Shown here: one piece after another, positions 1 through 38,633 of the stretch
Layout: each line of letters begins with the position of its first letter
Position numbering within the stretch: the first letter of the stretch is position 1
Origin: a virus
Virus record (IMG/VR): IMGVR_UViG_3300036770_003971
Span: 1-38,633 of that record
DNA length: 38,633 nucleotides
Reading direction: 5' to 3' (one strand)
Position numbers and translations under genes: made by a program
Notes under the pieces: model-generated
Database searches by the model: none
The model's input: the letters and a program-made list of their open reading frames with translations, nothing else
Told to the model about the DNA's origin: nothing

Positions 1-127
1 GGACAGGTCGGCTCCGGACAGGTCGGCTCCGGACAGGTCGGCTCTGGACAGGTTGGCTCCGGACAGGTCGGCTCTGGACAGGTCGGCTCCGGACAGGTTG
101 GCTACGTACAGGTTGGCTCTGGACAGG
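1..127. repeat. 127-bp terminal direct repeat (assembly overlap)
   Basis: Bases 1-127 are identical to 38507-38633, read base by base. A length of exactly 127 is a common final k-mer size in de Bruijn assemblers, so this most likely marks a circular contig rather than a biological terminal repeat. Dropping one copy keeps the pentapeptide-repeat gene in frame across the junction and gives a 38506-bp circle. Confidence 0.9.
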
Positions 128-468
128 TTGGCTCCGGACAGGTCGGCTCCGGACAGGTCGGCTCTGGACAGGTTGGCTCCGGACAGGTCGGCTTCGTACA
201 GGTTGGCTCCGGACAGGTCGGCTCCGGACAGGTCGGCTTCGTACAGGTTGGCTCCGGACATGTCGGCTCTGGACAGGTTGGCTCTGGACAGGTCGGCTCT
301 GGACAGGTTGGCTCCGGACAGGTCGGCTTCGTACAGGTTGGCTCCGGACAGGTCGGCTCCGGACAGGTCGGCTTCGTACAGGTTGGCTCCGGACAGGTCG
401 GCTCCGGACAGGTCGGCTCCGGACAGGTCGGCTCTGGACAGGTTGGCTCCGGACAGGTTGGCTCCGGA
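1..468 (-). repeat. 15-bp tandem array coding pentapeptide repeats (left part)
   Basis: About 31 near-identical 15-bp units, read on the minus strand as GCC-GAC/AAC-CTG-TCC-GGA with a few variants that change the last two codons. Codon use is the same from unit to unit, so the homogeneity is at the DNA level and suggests expansion by slippage or recombination rather than protein-level selection alone. The array continues at 38335-38633. Confidence 0.95.
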
Positions 469-561
469 CTTAACCGCCGCCTGAACGCATAACTTTAGAC
501 TTTCTGTTTCAAGCGAAAATATCGCCTCTCCGTTAAATCGGTTTTTTATCTCAAATTTCAT
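1..561 (-). CDS. Pentapeptide-repeat protein, N-terminal part (continues at 38506)
   Basis: The ATG at 561 follows an AGGGGA ribosome site. The first 31 residues (starting [15 protein letters not shown]) are non-repetitive. Then A(D/N)LSG-type pentapeptides run to base 1 with no stop. Joined in frame to 38506-38000 the protein is 355 residues: a short head, about 43 pentapeptides forming a predicted right-handed quadrilateral beta-helix, and a C-terminal domain of about 110 residues. Pentapeptide proteins with this head are common in phages and their role is mostly unknown; some bacterial relatives mimic DNA and bind gyrase, which is not shown here. The plus-strand open frame over the same DNA is a by-product of the repeat. 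Confidence 0.9.
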
Positions 562-2555: not shown

Positions 2556-3956
2556 CTACAGTCTGCCAATACGGGCAAAGCACTTGTCTATGTCTGATAT
2601 TTTACCCTTGTGCGCTACGATTATTTTTTGCTCACGCTTCGGGAACTTGCGGGTATTCAGTGTTTTCTTGGCATGAGCTAACCGCGTAAACTCGCACTCA
2701 ACATACACAATCCGGTTGTATACGCTTAACCCCTGTTCTTTTAAAAACATTTCGGTTTCTGATTCGCTGCAATAATACGCGCCGTTTTTGTCCCTACTGT
2801 CCCCGGTCATTATCACGAAAAACCGGTTATCTTTTAATCTGGCTATGGCCTGTTTGTAGCCTGAAAAAAGTAGGTCACGGAACTCATCGTAAGTCGGGCA
2901 TGAATTGATTTCGCCCGCTGGCGGCTTGCCATCGTAATCAAGATACTTCTCAACCTTGTAGTAAGGCGGGCAGGTAAACACTAAATCAATCGGTATTTCA
3001 GGGTCATATTTTGAACTGTCTGCCTGTACCCATCTGACGCGCCCATCGAACTGCGAGCAAATAGCGTTATTTGCATCAACCTGGTTCTGCCTGATTTCAC
3101 TGGCAAGGTATTGATAGCCGCAAGCGCCAGCAACAAACCCAAACTGAACCCCGCCGCCAAACGGGTTATAAACTACCCCGCCGTCTTTCGGCATAAAGAA
3201 CCTTGCTATAATTTCGCAGGCAAGCGGGTCAAGCACTGAAGCGTTGCCGTTGTGTGATTTAGTTGTTTCGACTACCTCGCCGTTTTCGTCAAGGGTGCGC
3301 CGCATGTTTACCACGTTGCTGTAGCCGTTTTCACCCTGCCAACAACCGTCACGAGTTGCGTAGGTCGGGTTTGTTATTCCCAAAGCCGCGCCCGCTGCGT
3401 TTATCTGTTCGTTCCATTCTTTTTTTAGTCTTAACCAATCGCCCTTAGTGGTTATCCATACGTTTGTCATGGTCACATGCGCAAGTAATTTCATGCGAAC
3501 GTCTGACAACTTGCCGCGTACCATGTAGTGAAATCCTGACATTTTAAGGTATGTCTGAAAGCCGAGCGATTCAAACAGTTTTGGAGTTTCAAACTTGCTT
3601 TTCGGGTCTGTGGTTATTATTGCCGGATAGCCCGCGACATTTTCAGCGACCACTCTTTCAACAAGTTCCCGATATAATTCTGGCGTGTAGTGGACTGGCT
3701 CAATAACGGACTGTAGCAAGCAAAATTCGCGCTCACTGTGATTATTCTGAAAGGTCATAAACCCCGCAAAGTTCCCGTCAATCTCAAGTATTACAGCAGA
3801 ATGAATCTGCATGTTTTTCCTTGCCGCACGTTGCGCGATGCCGTCCTCTATCGCTAGTTTAGCGACTGCTTTTTCAAAGCCTGAGCCAATTATTGACGGT
3901 AATACTGTCCACTTGATTGAATCGCCTGAGTTGAATAATGTTAAATTACTGTTCAT
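2556..3956 (-). CDS. GNAT-DNA methyltransferase fusion (putative base-modification enzyme)
   Basis: 466 residues, ATG at 3956 after an AAGGGGAA ribosome site. Residues about 30-150 have the strand-helix pattern of a GNAT acetyltransferase (VILEIDGNFAGFMTFQ, then KLFESLGFQTYLKMSGFHYMV). Residues about 235-440 form a Rossmann methyltransferase: a SAM-binding motif at 262-272 (VYNPFGGGVQF) and the catalytic CPPY at 329-332 typical of N6-adenine or N4-cytosine amino methylases. Motif I comes before the CPPY, as in the gamma/alpha order. A GNAT fold joined to an amino-methylase, next to a radical-SAM-like gene, suggests a modified exocyclic amine larger than methyl, in the manner of Mu Mom. That chemistry is inference. 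Confidence 0.75.
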   Translation of the reverse strand: MNSNLTLFNSGDSIKWTVLPSIIGSGFEKAVAKLAIEDGIAQRAARKNMQIHSAVILEIDGNFAGFMTFQNNHSEREFCLLQSVIEPVHYTPELYRELVERVVAENVAGYPAIITTDPKSKFETPKLFESLGFQTYLKMSGFHYMVRGKLSDVRMKLLAHVTMTNVWITTKGDWLRLKKEWNEQINAAGAALGITNPTYATRDGCWQGENGYSNVVNMRRTLDENGEVVETTKSHNGNASVLDPLACEIIARFFMPKDGGVVYNPFGGGVQFGFVAGACGYQYLASEIRQNQVDANNAICSQFDGRVRWVQADSSKYDPEIPIDLVFTCPPYYKVEKYLDYDGKPPAGEINSCPTYDEFRDLLFSGYKQAIARLKDNRFFVIMTGDSRDKNGAYYCSESETEMFLKEQGLSVYNRIVYVECEFTRLAHAKKTLNTRKFPKREQKIIVAHKGKISDIDKCFARIGRL

Positions 3957-3971
3957 TGTGTTCCCCTTTTT

Positions 3972-4838
3972 TTAAGAGCTAAAGAATGTTTGTTGTGGCG
4001 GATATGGTCTAACGTCAGGATTATCTAGTAATCCAGCCCCGCATAGTTCAGAGCATCCTGAACAATGCCCTAGATAAGTTTGTGATTCAGGCGCTATTGA
4101 TATAGTCCTGATTGCTGTTAAATCTTTTATTTTTCTTATATGAATAACCCCTGATTGCACTAGGTAGTGATTAGCGTTTACCCGCAACGGATTGTCTATT
4201 ATTGGGTTCATTGACATTAGCATTTTTTGTGTTTCGTTCATAGCGAATCCAATCGGGTCTAATAAATTAAAATCACATGAAACAACCCGCGCAATACTCG
4301 TCCCGCCTTTGTTCTTGTATCTTTGTATTTCTGTAAGCCGCCTTGATAAATGCTGTGAACTGTCAAGTCCTGATACTGATGTGTTTAAAACTGTCCCGCA
4401 TTTCACAAGTCTTTCAATCTGTGAATCTGACGCCTTGCGCCAGTGCTTAGTTATTATGACTGGTATCGCATAAGGGGCGAGCCATTCTACGACTTCAACG
4501 GTTTCTTCCCATGCGTGTGACGGGTCGCCCATTGTGCCTATCCTGAAAAAACCTAGCGGCGAATCCTTGACTGCGCGCTCAATGTTTTTAGCTTGAGCCC
4601 TTGTGTAAACCTTGCGAACTACAGCCCTCGAAAAGTCTATACCCATGTATTTAGACATGCTTGACGCGTAACAAGCCTGATAACAGCCTTTCTCGCCATG
4701 CGCCGCAATACCAGCCGTGCAGCCTTTAACCACGTCAATATCAAGAACGCCCTTTCTGTTAATATCAACAGTCAAAACGTCTTTGTAGTATCGTTTTGGC
4801 TTTTTGGCGCAAGGTGATTCTTGGCTAAACAGTTGCAC
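3972..4838 (-). CDS. Radical-SAM-like iron-sulfur protein of the modification cassette
   Basis: 288 residues, probable GTG start at 4838 behind ACAGGGGAA. Residues 37-60 carry GC(40)...GC(52)YQAC(56)YA, a Cys arrangement seen in phage radical-SAM-like proteins although not the standard CX3CX2C. Alternating strand-helix units (FFRIGTMGDPSH, PVIITKHWRK, NTSVSGL, ARVVSCDFNL, RVNANHY) fit a TIM barrel. A second Cys set near the C-terminus (GHCSGCSELCGAG) could bind another cluster. It lies 15 bp upstream of the GNAT-methylase gene and probably makes or modifies the group that enzyme transfers. Substrate unknown. Confidence 0.65.
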   Translation of the reverse strand: MQLFSQESPCAKKPKRYYKDVLTVDINRKGVLDIDVVKGCTAGIAAHGEKGCYQACYASSMSKYMGIDFSRAVVRKVYTRAQAKNIERAVKDSPLGFFRIGTMGDPSHAWEETVEVVEWLAPYAIPVIITKHWRKASDSQIERLVKCGTVLNTSVSGLDSSQHLSRRLTEIQRYKNKGGTSIARVVSCDFNLLDPIGFAMNETQKMLMSMNPIIDNPLRVNANHYLVQSGVIHIRKIKDLTAIRTISIAPESQTYLGHCSGCSELCGAGLLDNPDVRPYPPQQTFFSS

Positions 4839-30937: not shown

Positions 30938-31015
30938 TCAAAGCGGGACCGAGCGTCCGGCGCTAACCGAAACTTCCCCTAGCGGGTTTTGTATCCGAAG
31001 GCTCGACATAATCAT
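30938..31015 (-). CDS. Possible 25-residue micro-gene
   Basis: ATG at 31015 would have shared ATGA with the stop of the phage gene interrupted by the transposon. Reads MIMSSLRIQNPLGEVSVSAG and ends before the next small gene. Very short; included because the coupling pattern matches the rest of the operon. Confidence 0.3.
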   Translation of the reverse strand: MIMSSLRIQNPLGEVSVSAGRSVPL

Positions 31016-31052
31016 TCGTAGTCCCTCAATGAATCAATGTCCAAGTCCTTAG

Positions 31053-31063
31053 CCACAACTTCC
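31053..31063. repeat. Left target-site duplication (within CCACAACTTCC)
   Basis: CCACAACTTCC here and at 34071-34081 flank the element. Equal spacing to both inverted repeats is obtained with the 8-mer ACAACTTC (31055-31062 and 34073-34080). Confidence 0.85.
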
Positions 31064-31067
31064 GCGA

Positions 31068-31087
31068 TTATCCCTTGACGTCATGTA
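31068..31087 (+). repeat. Left terminal inverted repeat of the transposon
   Basis: TTATCCCTTGACGTCATGTA, matching the reverse complement of 34048-34067 at 19 of 20 positions. It contains the palindrome TGACGTCA. Confidence 0.9.
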
Positions 31088-31104
31088 TATAATACTGATA
31101 TTCT
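31075..31104 (+). promoter_or_regulatory. Transposase promoter within the left end
   Basis: TTGACG (31075-31080), an 18-bp spacer and TATTCT (31099-31104). A perfect TATAAT at 31088-31093 without a good -35 is an alternative. The -35 lies in the inverted repeat. Confidence 0.5.
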
Positions 31105-31134
31105 ATCCCCATACTGCATGTAGAGGATACTTAA

Positions 31135-32010
31135 GTGACTGATTTTACTGTAATAGAATTTTTTAACAGATTCCCAAATGATGACGTTTGCCTTGAGCAT
31201 TTGATGGATACGCGCTTCGGGCTTACTTCTGAATGTCCGAAATGCCATAAAACCAGCCGTTTTCATCGCATCAAAAAGCGCCCTGTTTACGAGTGCCAAT
31301 TTTGTGCGCACCAGATTAGCCCAATGGCCGGAACCCCGTTCGAGAAGTCACGCACCCCTTTGCGCAAGTGGTTCTATGCGATGTATCTGTTTACTACTTC
31401 CCGTCATGGTGTACCAGCTAAGGAATTACAGCGCCAGCTTGGTGTTACCTACAAGTGCGCCTGGCGCATGGGTCACGAGATACGCCAATATATGACCGAT
31501 GTAGACGGTAACGGCCCTATAGGTGGCGGTACAGTCGTGGAAATGGATGAAACCTTTATTGGTGGCAAACCGCGCTACAAAAAGAAAATGTTTGAACCCA
31601 GACGCAATGCCTATATCGGTAAAACCATTGTGTTCGGCATGGTTGAGCGTGATGGTAACGTCCAGACCCATGTAATCAAACAGCGTAGCCGTAAAGCCGT
31701 TCAGAAACACATCAAGCAGGTTGTTAAGGATACGGTTATCGCTACCGATGAAGCGCCTATGTATAAATACCTGACAAAAGCAGGATATTTACACGGTACG
31801 GTCTGCCATGAAACCGGTGAATATGTCAGAGGCCCGATACATACCAATTCGATAGAGGGCTACTGGTCACGCCTCAAAAACTCGATCCGAGGTACACACA
31901 TCCATGTAAGTGGCAAGCACATGCCTAAATACTTGGGTGAATTTGAGTACCGCTACAATATGCGCAAAAGCCCGAAATATATGTTTGAAAGGCTTTTGGG
32001 GGCTTTTTAA
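31135..32010 (+). CDS. IS1595-family (ISXO2-like) DDE transposase
   Basis: 291 residues from a GTG at 31135 behind AGAGGA. An N-terminal zinc ribbon has CPKC at 34-37 and CQFC at 54-57. The catalytic domain has EMDETFIGGK (D138), ATDEAP (D205) and HTNSIEGYWSRLK (N238, E241), the DDE/N pattern of ISXO2-like transposases. Length is normal and the frame is intact, so the element may be active. It cuts and joins the element ends at the TTATCCC repeats. Confidence 0.93.
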   Translation: MTDFTVIEFFNRFPNDDVCLEHLMDTRFGLTSECPKCHKTSRFHRIKKRPVYECQFCAHQISPMAGTPFEKSRTPLRKWFYAMYLFTTSRHGVPAKELQRQLGVTYKCAWRMGHEIRQYMTDVDGNGPIGGGTVVEMDETFIGGKPRYKKKMFEPRRNAYIGKTIVFGMVERDGNVQTHVIKQRSRKAVQKHIKQVVKDTVIATDEAPMYKYLTKAGYLHGTVCHETGEYVRGPIHTNSIEGYWSRLKNSIRGTHIHVSGKHMPKYLGEFEYRYNMRKSPKYMFERLLGAF

Positions 32011-32132
32011 TCAAGTTTAATCGGGCTAAATCCATTATCGTCCTGATATACTTGACCTTCATAAAGTTCCACATCATGCCAAATATTCACGACGTGGGGT
32101 TTTGTTTTAGTCAATCTGGGGAGTAATGACAT
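32007..32132 (-). CDS. Possible 41-residue ORF between transposase and protease
   Basis: An ATG at 32132 on the minus strand leads into a protein-like stretch (KPHVVNIWHDVELYEGQVYQ then DDNGFSPIKLD). It overlaps the transposase end by four bases and the protease start. It may be a leftover of a former cargo gene. No ribosome site stands out. Confidence 0.25.
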   Translation of the reverse strand: MSLLPRLTKTKPHVVNIWHDVELYEGQVYQDDNGFSPIKLD

Positions 32133-32913
32133 GAGTAATGGCCATAGTATTCCTGTCTCAGCGCCTGTTGATACCGACTCTGCTGGTCGCGGCGGCGAAC
32201 AGGCAATACAATCAGTTTTTCGGGTCATTTGTCGTGATACAAATTCATCTGGCACCTGTTTTCTGCACATAAGCGGGAATCTAATAACGGCAGAACACGT
32301 TATTCGTGGGAGCAAAAACCCTGAAATAGTTCTTTCAAATGGCAACCTTATTGCGTCATCTGTTACGGCCAGCAATTTAGATTTAGATTTGGCTGTATTA
32401 AAGCCCGTGACATCAATTAATGGACAGGCGTTAAAAATTTCAAGCCAAACAGACTTCGCTATCGGAACCCAGGTATCAACTTGGGGTTTCCCCGGCGGTT
32501 ATGGGGGTTCAATTCCTATGCTAAGCGTAGGGTATTTATCAGCAATGACCGGCTTCAAAACAAATTCCGGTAAAGTTATTAAGCAGTGGGTAGTTAACGC
32601 CGCCTTTAATTCTGGAAATTCGGGCGGACCATTATTGCATGTTGAAACAGGAGATGTTATTGGCATAGTTTCAAGCAAGCTAGCGCCACTTAGTCCCTCT
32701 ACTAAAATTGCGCTCGAAGCGCTGGCAAGCAATACCAGTGGTTTTATGTATACAAGCACGGCGCCCGATGGAACGATAACTAACTATTCAGAAGGACAGG
32801 TGATTGCCGCTGTGCTGAATGATCTGCGTCAGCAAATTCAACTTGTTATTGGAATGGCCGTGCTATTGTCTGATCTTCGTGATTATTTAAACGCAAATAA
32901 AATTACGCCTTAA
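32131..32913 (+). CDS. Trypsin-like serine protease, transposon cargo
   Basis: 260 residues, ATG at 32131 after GGGGAG. The chymotrypsin-fold triad is visible: H56 in NLITAEHVI, D86 in LDLDLAVLK, and S164 in FNSGNSGGPLL. There is no signal peptide or membrane helix, so it should act in the cytosol. The C-terminal 60 residues (QVIAAVLNDLRQQIQLVIGM then AVLLSDLRDYL) form a predicted coiled coil or oligomerisation helix. It faces a two-gene unit on the other strand whose ends meet 8 bp away. Proteases of this kind occur in several bacterial immune systems, which is only suggestive here. Confidence 0.85.
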   Translation: MSNGHSIPVSAPVDTDSAGRGGEQAIQSVFRVICRDTNSSGTCFLHISGNLITAEHVIRGSKNPEIVLSNGNLIASSVTASNLDLDLAVLKPVTSINGQALKISSQTDFAIGTQVSTWGFPGGYGGSIPMLSVGYLSAMTGFKTNSGKVIKQWVVNAAFNSGNSGGPLLHVETGDVIGIVSSKLAPLSPSTKIALEALASNTSGFMYTSTAPDGTITNYSEGQVIAAVLNDLRQQIQLVIGMAVLLSDLRDYLNANKITP

Positions 32914-32920
32914 ATAAGGC

Positions 32921-33073
32921 CTATTTTTTCTTTGGTTTCTGGCTTTTTGCCATCCGTTCCAATAGCCCGTCAAACTTCTCTTTGTTACCTGTAGATGGAT
33001 GCTGCTTGATAAACTTCTTCAAGCCCTTTTCGTCTTTGGCTTCTTCGAGAGATGTGTATTTACCGTCTGACAT
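32921..33073 (-). CDS. 50-residue basic protein, transposon cargo
   Basis: ATG at 33073 overlaps the stop of the 313-residue gene (TAATG). Reads MSDGKYTSLEEAKDEKGLKK and ends in a Lys-rich tail (AKSQKPKKK). Soluble and helical. Tight coupling suggests it partners the 313-residue protein. No family name known. Confidence 0.7.
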   Translation of the reverse strand: MSDGKYTSLEEAKDEKGLKKFIKQHPSTGNKEKFDGLLERMAKSQKPKKK

Positions 33074-34014
33074 TAATCGAATCCAAGAGTGGTTTGTTTG
33101 CCTGGATTTATTCGAGGCCTGAAATCTAGAACTTCCAGAATTTTATAATGATTATTTATCTTACCGGATTCTGAAATTGTTTGGGTTATTTCTAACCTGA
33201 CCTTGTAGGTGTCATTTATCATGGCTCCTCCACGCTCAAATGCTTGCTGGGCTATGTCAGTCTCAGAAATATCTGCATAAATATGCGTGTCTCCATAATA
33301 GAAACGCCATTTATCCACGCTTTGGTCATATACAGGAGAATAGACCTGAATGAATGCCGTAACTTCCTGTGTTCCGCAATCTTCCGCTGCGTCAGTTTGC
33401 TTAATTCTTAAAATACCCTTAGCCTCTTCTTTTGTTATCGCTTCTGAAACCACGTTTTTATGCTCAAACTCAACAGTTTCATAGCCTTCTTGGGAAAGCG
33501 GCTTAACGATGGACTGAATACTTTTAATGGCTTTATTGTCTTTAAAAAGCTCGTAAGCCTCTGGCATTACATTGACGTGATTATTATCGCCCAATACTGT
33601 TATTTGTATAACAGATTTACCTTCAATTTCCTTTAATTCTGCTTTTGATATCTTTCTATCTTTTAGCCACTTTACAAACTTAAAAAGGCCGATTGCTGCG
33701 AATTCAGCAGGAGGTAAAATAATACCTAACCATTCAAGTATCTCTTTTGCGTCAGAGACCTCTTGAATTCCGATTAGTTCTTTTGCTTGTTCGTAAAAAT
33801 CAAGCACGACTTGTAAGTCTAACTGGAAACAATTTTGGTCTAGATCGGCATTTACCAGAACACGGACAGAAGCCCTATTCTGATTAAATTTTGAATTAGC
33901 AATCTTACATAGATCGCCTATAGCCAAAAGCGCGGGGGCCAAATGGTTAACGTCTATTGAATGGCCTGATAAACTCGGCCCATCGTATCTAATCCTAACA
34001 AAATCATCTCGCAT
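33073..34014 (-). CDS. 313-residue cargo protein of unknown function
   Basis: ATG at 34014. The start (FVRIRYDGPSLSGHSIDVNH then LAPALLAIGDLCKIAN) and the stretch NQNRASVRVLVNADLDQNCF are recognisable from uncharacterised proteins in many bacterial genomes. Residues 94-116 (EWLGIILPPAEFAAIGLFKF) form a likely membrane or buried hydrophobic helix. A beta-rich C-terminal half has TAFIQVYSPVYDQSVDKWRF and YGDTHIYADIS. Lower GC than the phage genes around it. It forms a unit with the 50-residue protein and lies between the protease and the right transposon end. Function unknown. Confidence 0.75.
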   Translation of the reverse strand: MRDDFVRIRYDGPSLSGHSIDVNHLAPALLAIGDLCKIANSKFNQNRASVRVLVNADLDQNCFQLDLQVVLDFYEQAKELIGIQEVSDAKEILEWLGIILPPAEFAAIGLFKFVKWLKDRKISKAELKEIEGKSVIQITVLGDNNHVNVMPEAYELFKDNKAIKSIQSIVKPLSQEGYETVEFEHKNVVSEAITKEEAKGILRIKQTDAAEDCGTQEVTAFIQVYSPVYDQSVDKWRFYYGDTHIYADISETDIAQQAFERGGAMINDTYKVRLEITQTISESGKINNHYKILEVLDFRPRINPGKQTTLGFD

Positions 34015-34047
34015 TTTTAAATAATATGCCTAATTTGTGATTTATCG

Positions 34048-34067
34048 TACATGACGTCATGGGATAA
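34048..34067 (-). repeat. Right terminal inverted repeat of the transposon
   Basis: Reverse complement reads TTATCCCATGACGTCATGTA. It now forms the last codons and stop of the interrupted phage gene. Confidence 0.9.
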
Positions 34068-34362
34068 ACCCCACAACTTCCAACCATTGAACGTCCTTGT
34101 TATTGCCTGCCGTTGCAACCAGTTTTATCAGGCTGCGTCCGTCTTGCGATGTTGTGACAACCATAGACTTGACATTACTGGTTAATGATTCGTTACTGAT
34201 TGCGGCCTGTCCGGATTCAACGGTGACAGTTACGGCCGTGACCGTGCCGTTTACCTGCGCCCATGATGTGTAATCAAAACTAATAGTCTCTTGCCCTGAC
34301 TCAAACGCGAGTCGCGACTGTTTGCGTCGGGTTCTGGTCGGAGTGACATTGTAAGTTTTCAT
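34057..34362 (-). CDS. Phage Ig-like/virion-type protein with transposon-altered C-terminus
   Basis: 101 residues, ATG at 34362 sharing ATGA with the micro-gene upstream. Beta-rich sequence (ETISFDYTSWAQVNGTVTAV, VTVESGQAAISNESLTSNVK, MVVTTSQDGRSLIKLVATAG) matches small phage proteins that often precede packaging genes. After DVQWLEVV the frame enters the right transposon end and stops as GFIP. Across the element, the original frame reads on as AKDLDIDSLRDYE and stop. So 13 native residues were replaced by four and the protein is probably still made. Confidence 0.8.
   Translation of the reverse strand: MKTYNVTPTRTRRKQSRLAFESGQETISFDYTSWAQVNGTVTAVTVTVESGQAAISNESLTSNVKSMVVTTSQDGRSLIKLVATAGNNKDVQWLEVVGFIP
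34071..34081. repeat. Right target-site duplication (within CCACAACTTCC)
   Basis: Identical to 31053-31063. On the coding strand it is the E-V-V codon stretch of the interrupted gene. Confidence 0.85.
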
Positions 34363-38007: not shown

Positions 38008-38633
38008 AATTTTCGGCTTCTATTCGGGTGATGAAAAAATGAATCCCACCTGAGCACTCGTTAAACCTGTCAGTATCCCATTTGCCAGCGGTTACGCGCT
38101 CGCCTGCGCGGTACTCGGTCATGCCGTCGTGCTTGCTTATGCCTTTATCGGCGCCGATTACCTCAATAACGTCAGCGTATTCTGCGCGGCATTTGCGGCC
38201 TGATGCGTTTGAACGCTTGGCAGATTCAGGTATGCGCAGCTTCACAATTACGCCTGTAGCGCATTTTTTCCAGCCTATTACATCGCCGCAATCCGGCAGG
38301 ATGGATGTCTGCGCTAATGCGTGGTCGGCTGATTTGGCTCCGGACAGGTCGGCTCTGGACAGGTTGGCTCTGGACAGGTCGGCTCTGGACAGGTTGGCTC
38401 CGGACAGGTCGGCTTCGTACAGGTTGGCTCTGGACAGGTCGGCTCCGGACAGGTCGGCTCTGGACAGGTCGGCTCCGGACAGGTTGGCTACGTACAGGTT
38501 GGCTCTGGACAGGTCGGCTCCGGACAGGTCGGCTCCGGACAGGTCGGCTCTGGACAGGTTGGCTCCGGACAGGTCGGCTCTGGACAGGTCGGCTCCGGAC
38601 AGGTTGGCTACGTACAGGTTGGCTCTGGACAGG
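38000..38633 (-). CDS. Pentapeptide-repeat protein, C-terminal part with DUF5758-like domain
   Basis: Open from the window edge to a TAA at 38000. The repeats end near 38335. The remaining 111 residues (with motifs ALAQTSILP and VIGWKK) resemble the DUF5758 domain that often ends phage pentapeptide-repeat proteins; this assignment is from memory of the family. A shorter reading from an internal GTG at 38245 would miss both the repeats and the start of the domain. The stop codon overlaps the ATG of the next small gene at 38007, suggesting coupled translation. Bases 38507-38633 duplicate 1-127 and should be counted once. Confidence 0.88.
   Translation of the reverse strand, partial: LSRANLYVANLSGADLSRADLSGANLSRADLSGADLSGADLSRANLYVANLSGADLSRADLSGADLSRANLYEADLSGANLSRADLSRANLSRADLSGAKSADHALAQTSILPDCGDVIGWKKCATGVIVKLRIPESAKRSNASGRKCRAEYADVIEVIGADKGISKHDGMTEYRAGERVTAGKWDTDRFNECSGGIHFFITRIEAENYE
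38335..38633 (-). repeat. 15-bp tandem array coding pentapeptide repeats (right part)
   Basis: The same 15-bp unit family as at 1-468, about 20 units, of which the last 127 bp duplicate the start of the window. After circularisation the full array is about 43 units long. Confidence 0.95.
38507..38633. repeat. Second copy of the 127-bp terminal direct repeat
   Basis: Identical to 1-127. It lies wholly inside the 15-bp tandem repeat array, so the exact number of array units in the real genome could differ from the assembly. Confidence 0.9.

What the first reader, a model, noticed from the sequence alone, without database searches (positions are those of the whole stretch)
32131..34014. Trypsin-like protease + 50-residue basic protein + 313-residue unknown protein: a candidate undescribed system
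A cytosolic serine protease with an intact triad is paired, tail to tail, with a coupled two-gene unit, all enclosed between transposon ends. Mobile cargo that includes an intracellular protease often turns out to be a defence or toxin-type system, with the protease acting as effector or switch. The 313-residue protein has a possible membrane segment. The function is inferred from arrangement only.
Basis: inference. Interest (0 to 1): 0.8.

Follow-up and report, generated by a model that had tools for sequence, protein, structure and literature searches.

The report
Phage-borne transposon with swappable defence-like cargo
The three genes are not one new molecular machine: they ride in a small jumping element that landed in a virus of bacteria, and its relatives keep the same jumping gene and usually the same tiny gene while swapping in different cargo, often of anti-virus or toxin-antitoxin type.

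Summary
All three ORFs, the catalytic triad and the transposon ends are there. The block is a 3,010-bp IS1595-family passenger transposon (31063-34072, 8-bp duplication ACAACTTC) inserted in a tailed-phage gene; joining the flanks restores that reading frame. The "three-gene system" fails its own refutation test. The 313-residue protein belongs to the known LAPAL family (NCBIfam NF053583, PADLOC candidate PDC-S42). I located it in 136 loci; none but the window has a trypsin-like neighbour. The 50-residue protein is a transposon gene: among those 136 loci it occurs only beside the three IS1595-borne LAPALs, yet homologues sit beside the transposase of about 20 related elements, most with unrelated cargo (DUF7946, Panacea, membrane proteins). 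In the nearest relative (L216) only the left end, transposase and small gene align; cargo is different. Further relatives carry PDC-S45 proteases, CapP-type peptidases or N6-methylases. Exact 8-bp duplications were found in 23 of 37 loci, against 1 of 1,330 mismatched pairs. LAPAL elsewhere is a single gene, often behind a prophage repressor or beside an integrase, so a lysogen-protective role is the best guess, untested. The protease is a second, apparently independent cargo.

The parts
31063..34072 (.). IS1595-family passenger transposon, 3,010 bp
   Evidence: TIRs + exact 8-bp TSD + transposase; control 23/37 v 1/1330
31063..31087 (+). left terminal inverted repeat CGCGATTATCCCTTGACGTCATGTA; includes a -35-like TTGACG for the transposase
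34048..34072 (-). right terminal inverted repeat (GGGGTTTATCCCATGACGTCATGTA on the minus strand)
31055..31062 (.). target-site duplication ACAACTTC, left copy (11-bp direct repeat CCACAACTTCC at 31053-31063)
34073..34080 (.). target-site duplication ACAACTTC, right copy (11-bp repeat at 34071-34081)
31135..32010 (+). IS1595 transposase (Zn ribbon + ISXO2-like DDE domain), 291 aa, GTG start
   Evidence: PF12762 E 2e-36, PF12760 E 4e-10; NF033547 E 1.5e-58
32131..32913 (+). trypsin-like serine protease (S1/HtrA-type domain, no PDZ), 260 aa; variable cargo
   Evidence: PF13365 E 8e-18; H, D, S164 motifs; not found with any other LAPAL
32907..32920 (.). palindrome GCCTTAAATAAGGC with T-rich tails on both sides: candidate bidirectional terminator between the converging genes
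   Evidence: consensus scan only; number of such sites in the region not above shuffles
32921..33073 (-). 50-aa basic protein, transposon accessory gene; its start codon shares one base with the end of the LAPAL gene
   Evidence: homologues next to the transposase of elements with unrelated cargo; differences from L216 by codon position 13/8/27
33073..34014 (-). LAPAL-family protein (NF053583 / PDC-S42 / phrog_3243), 313 aa; cargo, starts 58 bp inside the right end
   Evidence: AlphaFold2 pLDDT 86
34057..34362 (-). interrupted phage gene, 5' part (101-aa ORF whose last codons come from the transposon)
   Evidence: empty-site join restores ...DVQWLEVVAKDLDIDSLRDYE*
31012..31062 (-). interrupted phage gene, 3' remnant

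Best explanation
This is a passenger-gene transposon of the IS1595 family that has jumped into the genome of a tailed phage. The transposase recognises the two ends and moves everything between them (shown indirectly for the group by exact duplications, and by two identical copies at different sites of one genome). Next to the transposase, in the opposite direction, most members of the group carry a small protein gene (50 aa here) directly behind one or two cargo genes; this small gene is part of the transposon backbone and lies in line with whatever cargo is present (shown by comparison; its role is unknown). Here the cargo is a LAPAL/PDC-S42 protein and, in the slot between transposase and small gene, a trypsin-like protease. 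The two are most likely independent passengers. Most likely LAPAL is a single-gene factor expressed from prophages and mobile elements that protects the lysogen or host cell against other phages (inferred from its position behind prophage repressors and beside integrases, from its PADLOC candidate status and from the company it keeps in sister transposons; about 45% likely). Its C-terminal OB-like domain suggests that it binds single-stranded nucleic acid (inferred, weak). The protease would add a second, separate effector or processing activity (speculative).
For: Element: ends, duplication and restored phage frame; 23/37 exact duplications v 1/1330 in controls, and two 100% identical 2,434-bp copies in one genome (G388) with different duplications and unrelated flanks. 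Backbone v cargo: against the nearest relative L216 only 1-949 (left end, transposase) and 1884-2013 (small gene) of the element align, both about 71%, while cargo differs; small-protein homologues in 10 elements (window included) at E<0.01 in a first round and about 20 in a second, using only the part that does not overlap the transposase. Small gene tracks the transposon: in 136 LAPAL loci it is found only in the three IS1595-borne ones (window, L148, L150). LAPAL sits on separate transposase branches (window; L218; L239/L248), with window+L216 100/99 supported although L216 carries Panacea + membrane protein + GIY-YIG. LAPAL elsewhere: 41 loci behind one of two phage-repressor clusters, mostly within about 120 bp on the same strand; beside the integrase or in the lysogeny region of Listeria phage vB_LmoS_188 and Bifidobacterium phages PMBT6 and Bbif-1, and between lysin and integrase in Lactobacillus phage A2. 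OB-like domain: SSB-type folds among PDB matches.
Against: No experiment on LAPAL was found. LAPAL also sits in the head region of some Mu-like prophages (12 loci by neighbour cluster) and alone among housekeeping genes of Burkholderia/Caballeronia, which fits a general accessory gene as well as defence. The OB match is weak (E 0.01-0.1; whole-chain TM-scores low). Roughly half of the sister cargo has no recognised family. In three loci with PDC-S45 proteases no small protein was found, and in the LAPAL element L218 and a few others only a poorly matching Lys-rich ORF, so it is not universal.
Confidence: 0.75

Rival explanations
1. Protease, 50-aa and 313-aa proteins form one defence or toxin system in which the protease is effector or switch.
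For: Tight packing, 7 bp between protease and 50-aa gene, one-base overlap of the other two; protease domains occur in PADLOC systems.
Against: No trypsin-like gene near LAPAL in the other 135 loci; the small gene goes with other cargo; the sister element L216 has GIY-YIG in the protease slot and Panacea + membrane protein in the LAPAL slot.
Confidence: 0.1
2. The small protein is a partner of the cargo, for example an antitoxin-like or immunity protein that guards many different cargo toxins, read out by translational coupling.
For: It directly follows, often overlaps, the cargo gene in many elements; 18 synonymous v 15 amino-acid changes and third-position excess against L216 show it is translated.
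Against: Closely similar small proteins accompany unrelated cargo, which is hard for a specific antitoxin; it lies behind, not before, the cargo; LAPAL in 133 other loci has none; three PDC-S45 loci lack it.
Confidence: 0.2
3. LAPAL and the protease are host-fitness or lysogenic-conversion cargo without an anti-phage role.
For: LAPAL also stands alone in Burkholderia/Caballeronia chromosomes between conserved genes.
Against: Repressor-linked position in prophages and defence-type cargo in sister elements.
Confidence: 0.3
4. The 313-aa protein is a phage structural protein, as the NCBIfam name says.
For: Family name; some Mu-like prophages carry it within the head-gene block.
Against: It lies on transposons (window, L148, L150, L218), in bacterial chromosomes and next to integrases or repressors.
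Confidence: 0.05

Closest known systems
IS1595-family transposons with passenger genes (tIS; e.g. tISCpe8 and MTnSag1/tISSag10, PMC5704250; the defining paper Siguier et al. 2009 is cited there and was not read)
   Same: IS1595 DDE transposase, terminal inverted repeats, 8-bp duplication, passenger genes between the ends.
   Different: Different cargo (LAPAL, protease); a conserved small gene opposite the transposase; the copy lies in a phage genome. No such group with defence-type cargo turned up in the held papers.
LAPAL family: NCBIfam NF053583 / PADLOC PDC-S42 / PHROG 3243
   Same: 313-aa protein scores 177.7 bits v cut-off 60 and E 1e-52 to PDC-S42; LAPAL motif present.
   Different: Only 21-33% identical to other members aligned; rides on an IS1595 element.
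Trypsin_2 / HtrA-Deg type S1 proteases
   Same: Catalytic domain and triad.
   Different: No PDZ domain, no visible export signal; closest homologues in 399 genomes of the phylum only about 28-37% identical, mostly in long frames.
PADLOC PDC-S45 (trypsin-like candidate) carried by sister IS1595 elements L234, L240 and next to the IS1595 transposase of L008
   Same: Trypsin-like protein as cargo of the same transposon group.
   Different: The window protease does not match PDC-S45 and lies on the transposase strand.

Membership tests
IS1595-family transposon with passenger genes | IS1595 transposase with Zn ribbon and DDE domain | tested here: met
   PF12762, PF12760, NF033547 all above cut-off
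IS1595-family transposon with passenger genes | terminal inverted repeats and 8-bp target duplication | tested here: met
   control
IS1595-family transposon with passenger genes | non-transposase genes within the ends | tested here: met
   three ORFs; relatives likewise
IS1595-family transposon with passenger genes | demonstrated transposition | not testable with these tools
   indirect only: two identical copies at different sites in G388
LAPAL / PDC-S42 | curated model score and full-length match | tested here: met
   NF053583 177.7 bits v 60, residues 7-300 on 2-292/292
LAPAL / PDC-S42 | anti-phage activity implied by the PADLOC candidate label | not testable with these tools
   no experimental report found; PDC-S42 is in no held paper
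HtrA/Deg proteases | S1 domain with His-Asp-Ser triad | tested here: met
HtrA/Deg proteases | PDZ domain | tested here: not met
   no PDZ match in Pfam; 260 aa only
RT-protease (PADLOC RT-Protease_XI) | reverse transcriptase fused to the protease | tested here: not met
   only profile positions 332-498 of 506 match; no RT domain in Pfam
PDC-S45 | match of the window protease to the profile | tested here: not met
   absent, although L008, L234 and L240 match
   0 of 135 other LAPAL loci; 0 LAPAL near 30 protease homologues, 1.5 kb flanks

The most novel reading that the evidence does not exclude
A lineage of IS1595 transposons acts as a dedicated shuttle for defence and toxin-antitoxin genes among bacteria, plasmids and phages, with a conserved small accessory protein of about 50 residues that is coupled to any cargo and regulates transposition or cargo expression.
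Probability: 0.35. Interest if true: 0.8.

Novelty: new variant of a known kind. Interest (0 to 1): 0.6.

Why it matters
IS1595 elements with passengers are known, but a lineage whose cargo is often of defence or toxin-antitoxin type, with a conserved coupled small protein, would explain how single defence genes hop between genomes and into phages in units of 2-3 kb. It also gives a simple search method: take the gene between the small ORF and the far inverted repeat of each copy, and new candidate defence genes fall out. It further argues that NF053583 is misnamed as structural.

Tried and rejected
Close relatives of the 313-aa protein and of the protease in viral contigs: none. The first seven-sequence alignment was too diverse to scan with; a four-sequence one worked. 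Relatives of the phage by its terminase: one distant partial contig, so no natural empty site was available; the empty site was inferred from the window itself. A membrane-pore role for the 313-aa protein: weak hydropathy, no long helix in the model. A PDB sequence homologue of LAPAL: none. Labels I first gave from memory to two cargo genes (DUF1828-like in L241-243, PemK-like in L232) were not confirmed by Pfam and are dropped. Iterated small-protein profiles partly align the stretch antisense to the transposase end, so only the non-overlapping part was counted. Literature searches for PDC-S42 and for IS1595 with defence cargo found nothing in the held library; subscription papers could not be checked.

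Full report
What is there. The window is a single virus record with terminase, portal and major head protein genes. The three ORFs of the finding are real and lie as described. They are the inner part of a 3,010-bp transposon, 31063-34072, with an IS1595-family transposase at 31135-32010. The ends carry imperfect inverted repeats (...TTATCCC.TGACGTCATGTA). The flanks show an 11-bp direct repeat, of which the 8 bp ACAACTTC is the duplication that fits symmetric ends and the 8-bp duplications of the relatives. Joining the flanks restores a phage reading frame that the insertion had cut.

The relatives of the transposon. Close IS1595 transposases (E<1e-60) occur in 27 of 385 genomes of one class (that of the Sphingomonadaceae locus L150) and 5 of 369 of another (that of the Methylobacter locus L104), and in plasmid and viral records. 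I fetched the regions and searched for ends and duplications: 23 of 37 loci, the window included, gave an exact 8-bp duplication, against 1 of 1,330 when left and right halves came from different loci. One genome holds two identical 2,434-bp copies with different duplications and unrelated flanks, i.e. recent movement of transposase plus cargo.

Cargo is exchanged. Behind the transposase, mostly on the opposite strand, the elements carry different genes. Recognised ones are: LAPAL/PDC-S42 (window, L218, and L239/L248, which are the L150/L148 elements); DUF7946/7947 proteins, one of which (L226) weakly matches PDC-S42; trypsin-like PDC-S45 (L234, L240, and L008, whose ends were not found); M78/CapP-type peptidase plus a membrane protein (L221, L225); SocA/Panacea (L216, L232); N6-methylases similar to type I/IIG enzymes (L217, L235, L236); a Cas2-like protein (L016). 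Searches give tallies; assigning some of them to single loci rests on my reading of the sequences. Others are membrane or unknown proteins. I saw no antibiotic-resistance or metabolic gene among the cargo, but made no exhaustive check.

The 50-residue protein belongs to the transposon. Homologues lie next to the transposase in elements with unrelated cargo: 10 sequences, the window's own included, at E<0.01 with the window protein as query, about 20 in a second round, counting only the part not antisense to the transposase. Against the nearest element, L216 (transposase 73% identical), only the left end with transposase and the small gene align; all other genes differ. Changes by codon position of 13, 8 and 27 show that it is a translated, selected gene. 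In 136 LAPAL loci the small gene occurs only in the three IS1595-borne ones.

The 313-residue protein. It is a full-length member of NF053583 and PDC-S42. In 136 loci from viral contigs, genomes, plasmids and phages no trypsin-like gene lies near it except in the window. It follows one of two types of phage repressor on the same strand in 41 loci, sits in lysogeny regions of cultured Listeria, Bifidobacterium and Lactobacillus phages, lies in the head-gene block of some Mu-like prophages, and stands alone in Burkholderia-group chromosomes. Gp31 of mycobacteriophage Pipsqueaks, upstream of the integrase, is a relative of its C-terminal part; that this variable stretch is known for prophage defence genes in related phages is my recollection, not a test. 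The AlphaFold2 model (pLDDT 86) ends in an OB-like barrel resembling single-strand-binding proteins, with weak statistics.

The protease. It is an S1/HtrA-type catalytic domain with intact triad and no PDZ domain. I found no close homologue (28-37% in 399 genomes), so its history cannot be traced. Its slot, between transposase and small gene, holds a GIY-YIG-like gene in L216. It is best seen as a second passenger.

Verdict. Observation confirmed; the system claim is not borne out, but the mobile-defence intuition is partly right at the level of the transposon. Shown: element, duplication, cargo exchange, backbone small gene. Inferred: lysogen-protective role of LAPAL, nucleic-acid binding, independence of the protease. 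Not known: what the small protein does.

Noticed in passing
window 1-561 and 38226-38633: Both ends of the record lie in the same kind of A(D/N)LS pentapeptide-repeat coding sequence, so the contig may be circular or broken within a repetitive gene.
   Followed up: no
window 2556-4838: A 466-aa ORF that looks like an acetyltransferase-like part joined to a DNA methylase (TCPPY motif), next to a 288-aa Cys-rich ORF resembling phage GP88-type proteins; possible DNA-modification pair (by eye only).
   Followed up: no
L016:4920-7446: IS1595 element on a Geminicoccaceae plasmid, perfect 14-bp repeats and duplication GCACGCAA, with a Cas2-like passenger (Pfam E 6e-5) and a 198-aa unknown.
   Followed up: partly
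L232: 4,557-bp IS1595 element with a HTH gene, a membrane protein, a Panacea-like gene and further ORFs: the most gene-rich member seen.
   Followed up: partly
L226:1790-2683, L231:1784-2461, L238:4011-4877: DUF7946/7947 proteins as transposon cargo share the N-terminal pattern of LAPAL; L226 matches PDC-S42 at E 4.5e-5, so the families are probably related.
   Followed up: partly
L017-L169 (LAPAL loci; NCBIfam NF053583): The name 'putative phage structural protein' is probably misleading: members sit in lysogeny modules, transposons and chromosomes.
   Followed up: yes
L252:5750-6304 (Mycobacterium phage Pipsqueaks gp31): Relative of the LAPAL C-terminal domain upstream of the integrase and immunity repressor; a genetically tractable test case.
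   Followed up: partly
L009:4383-5922: A more distant IS1595 relative in another viral contig, duplication TTATAGAA.
   Followed up: no
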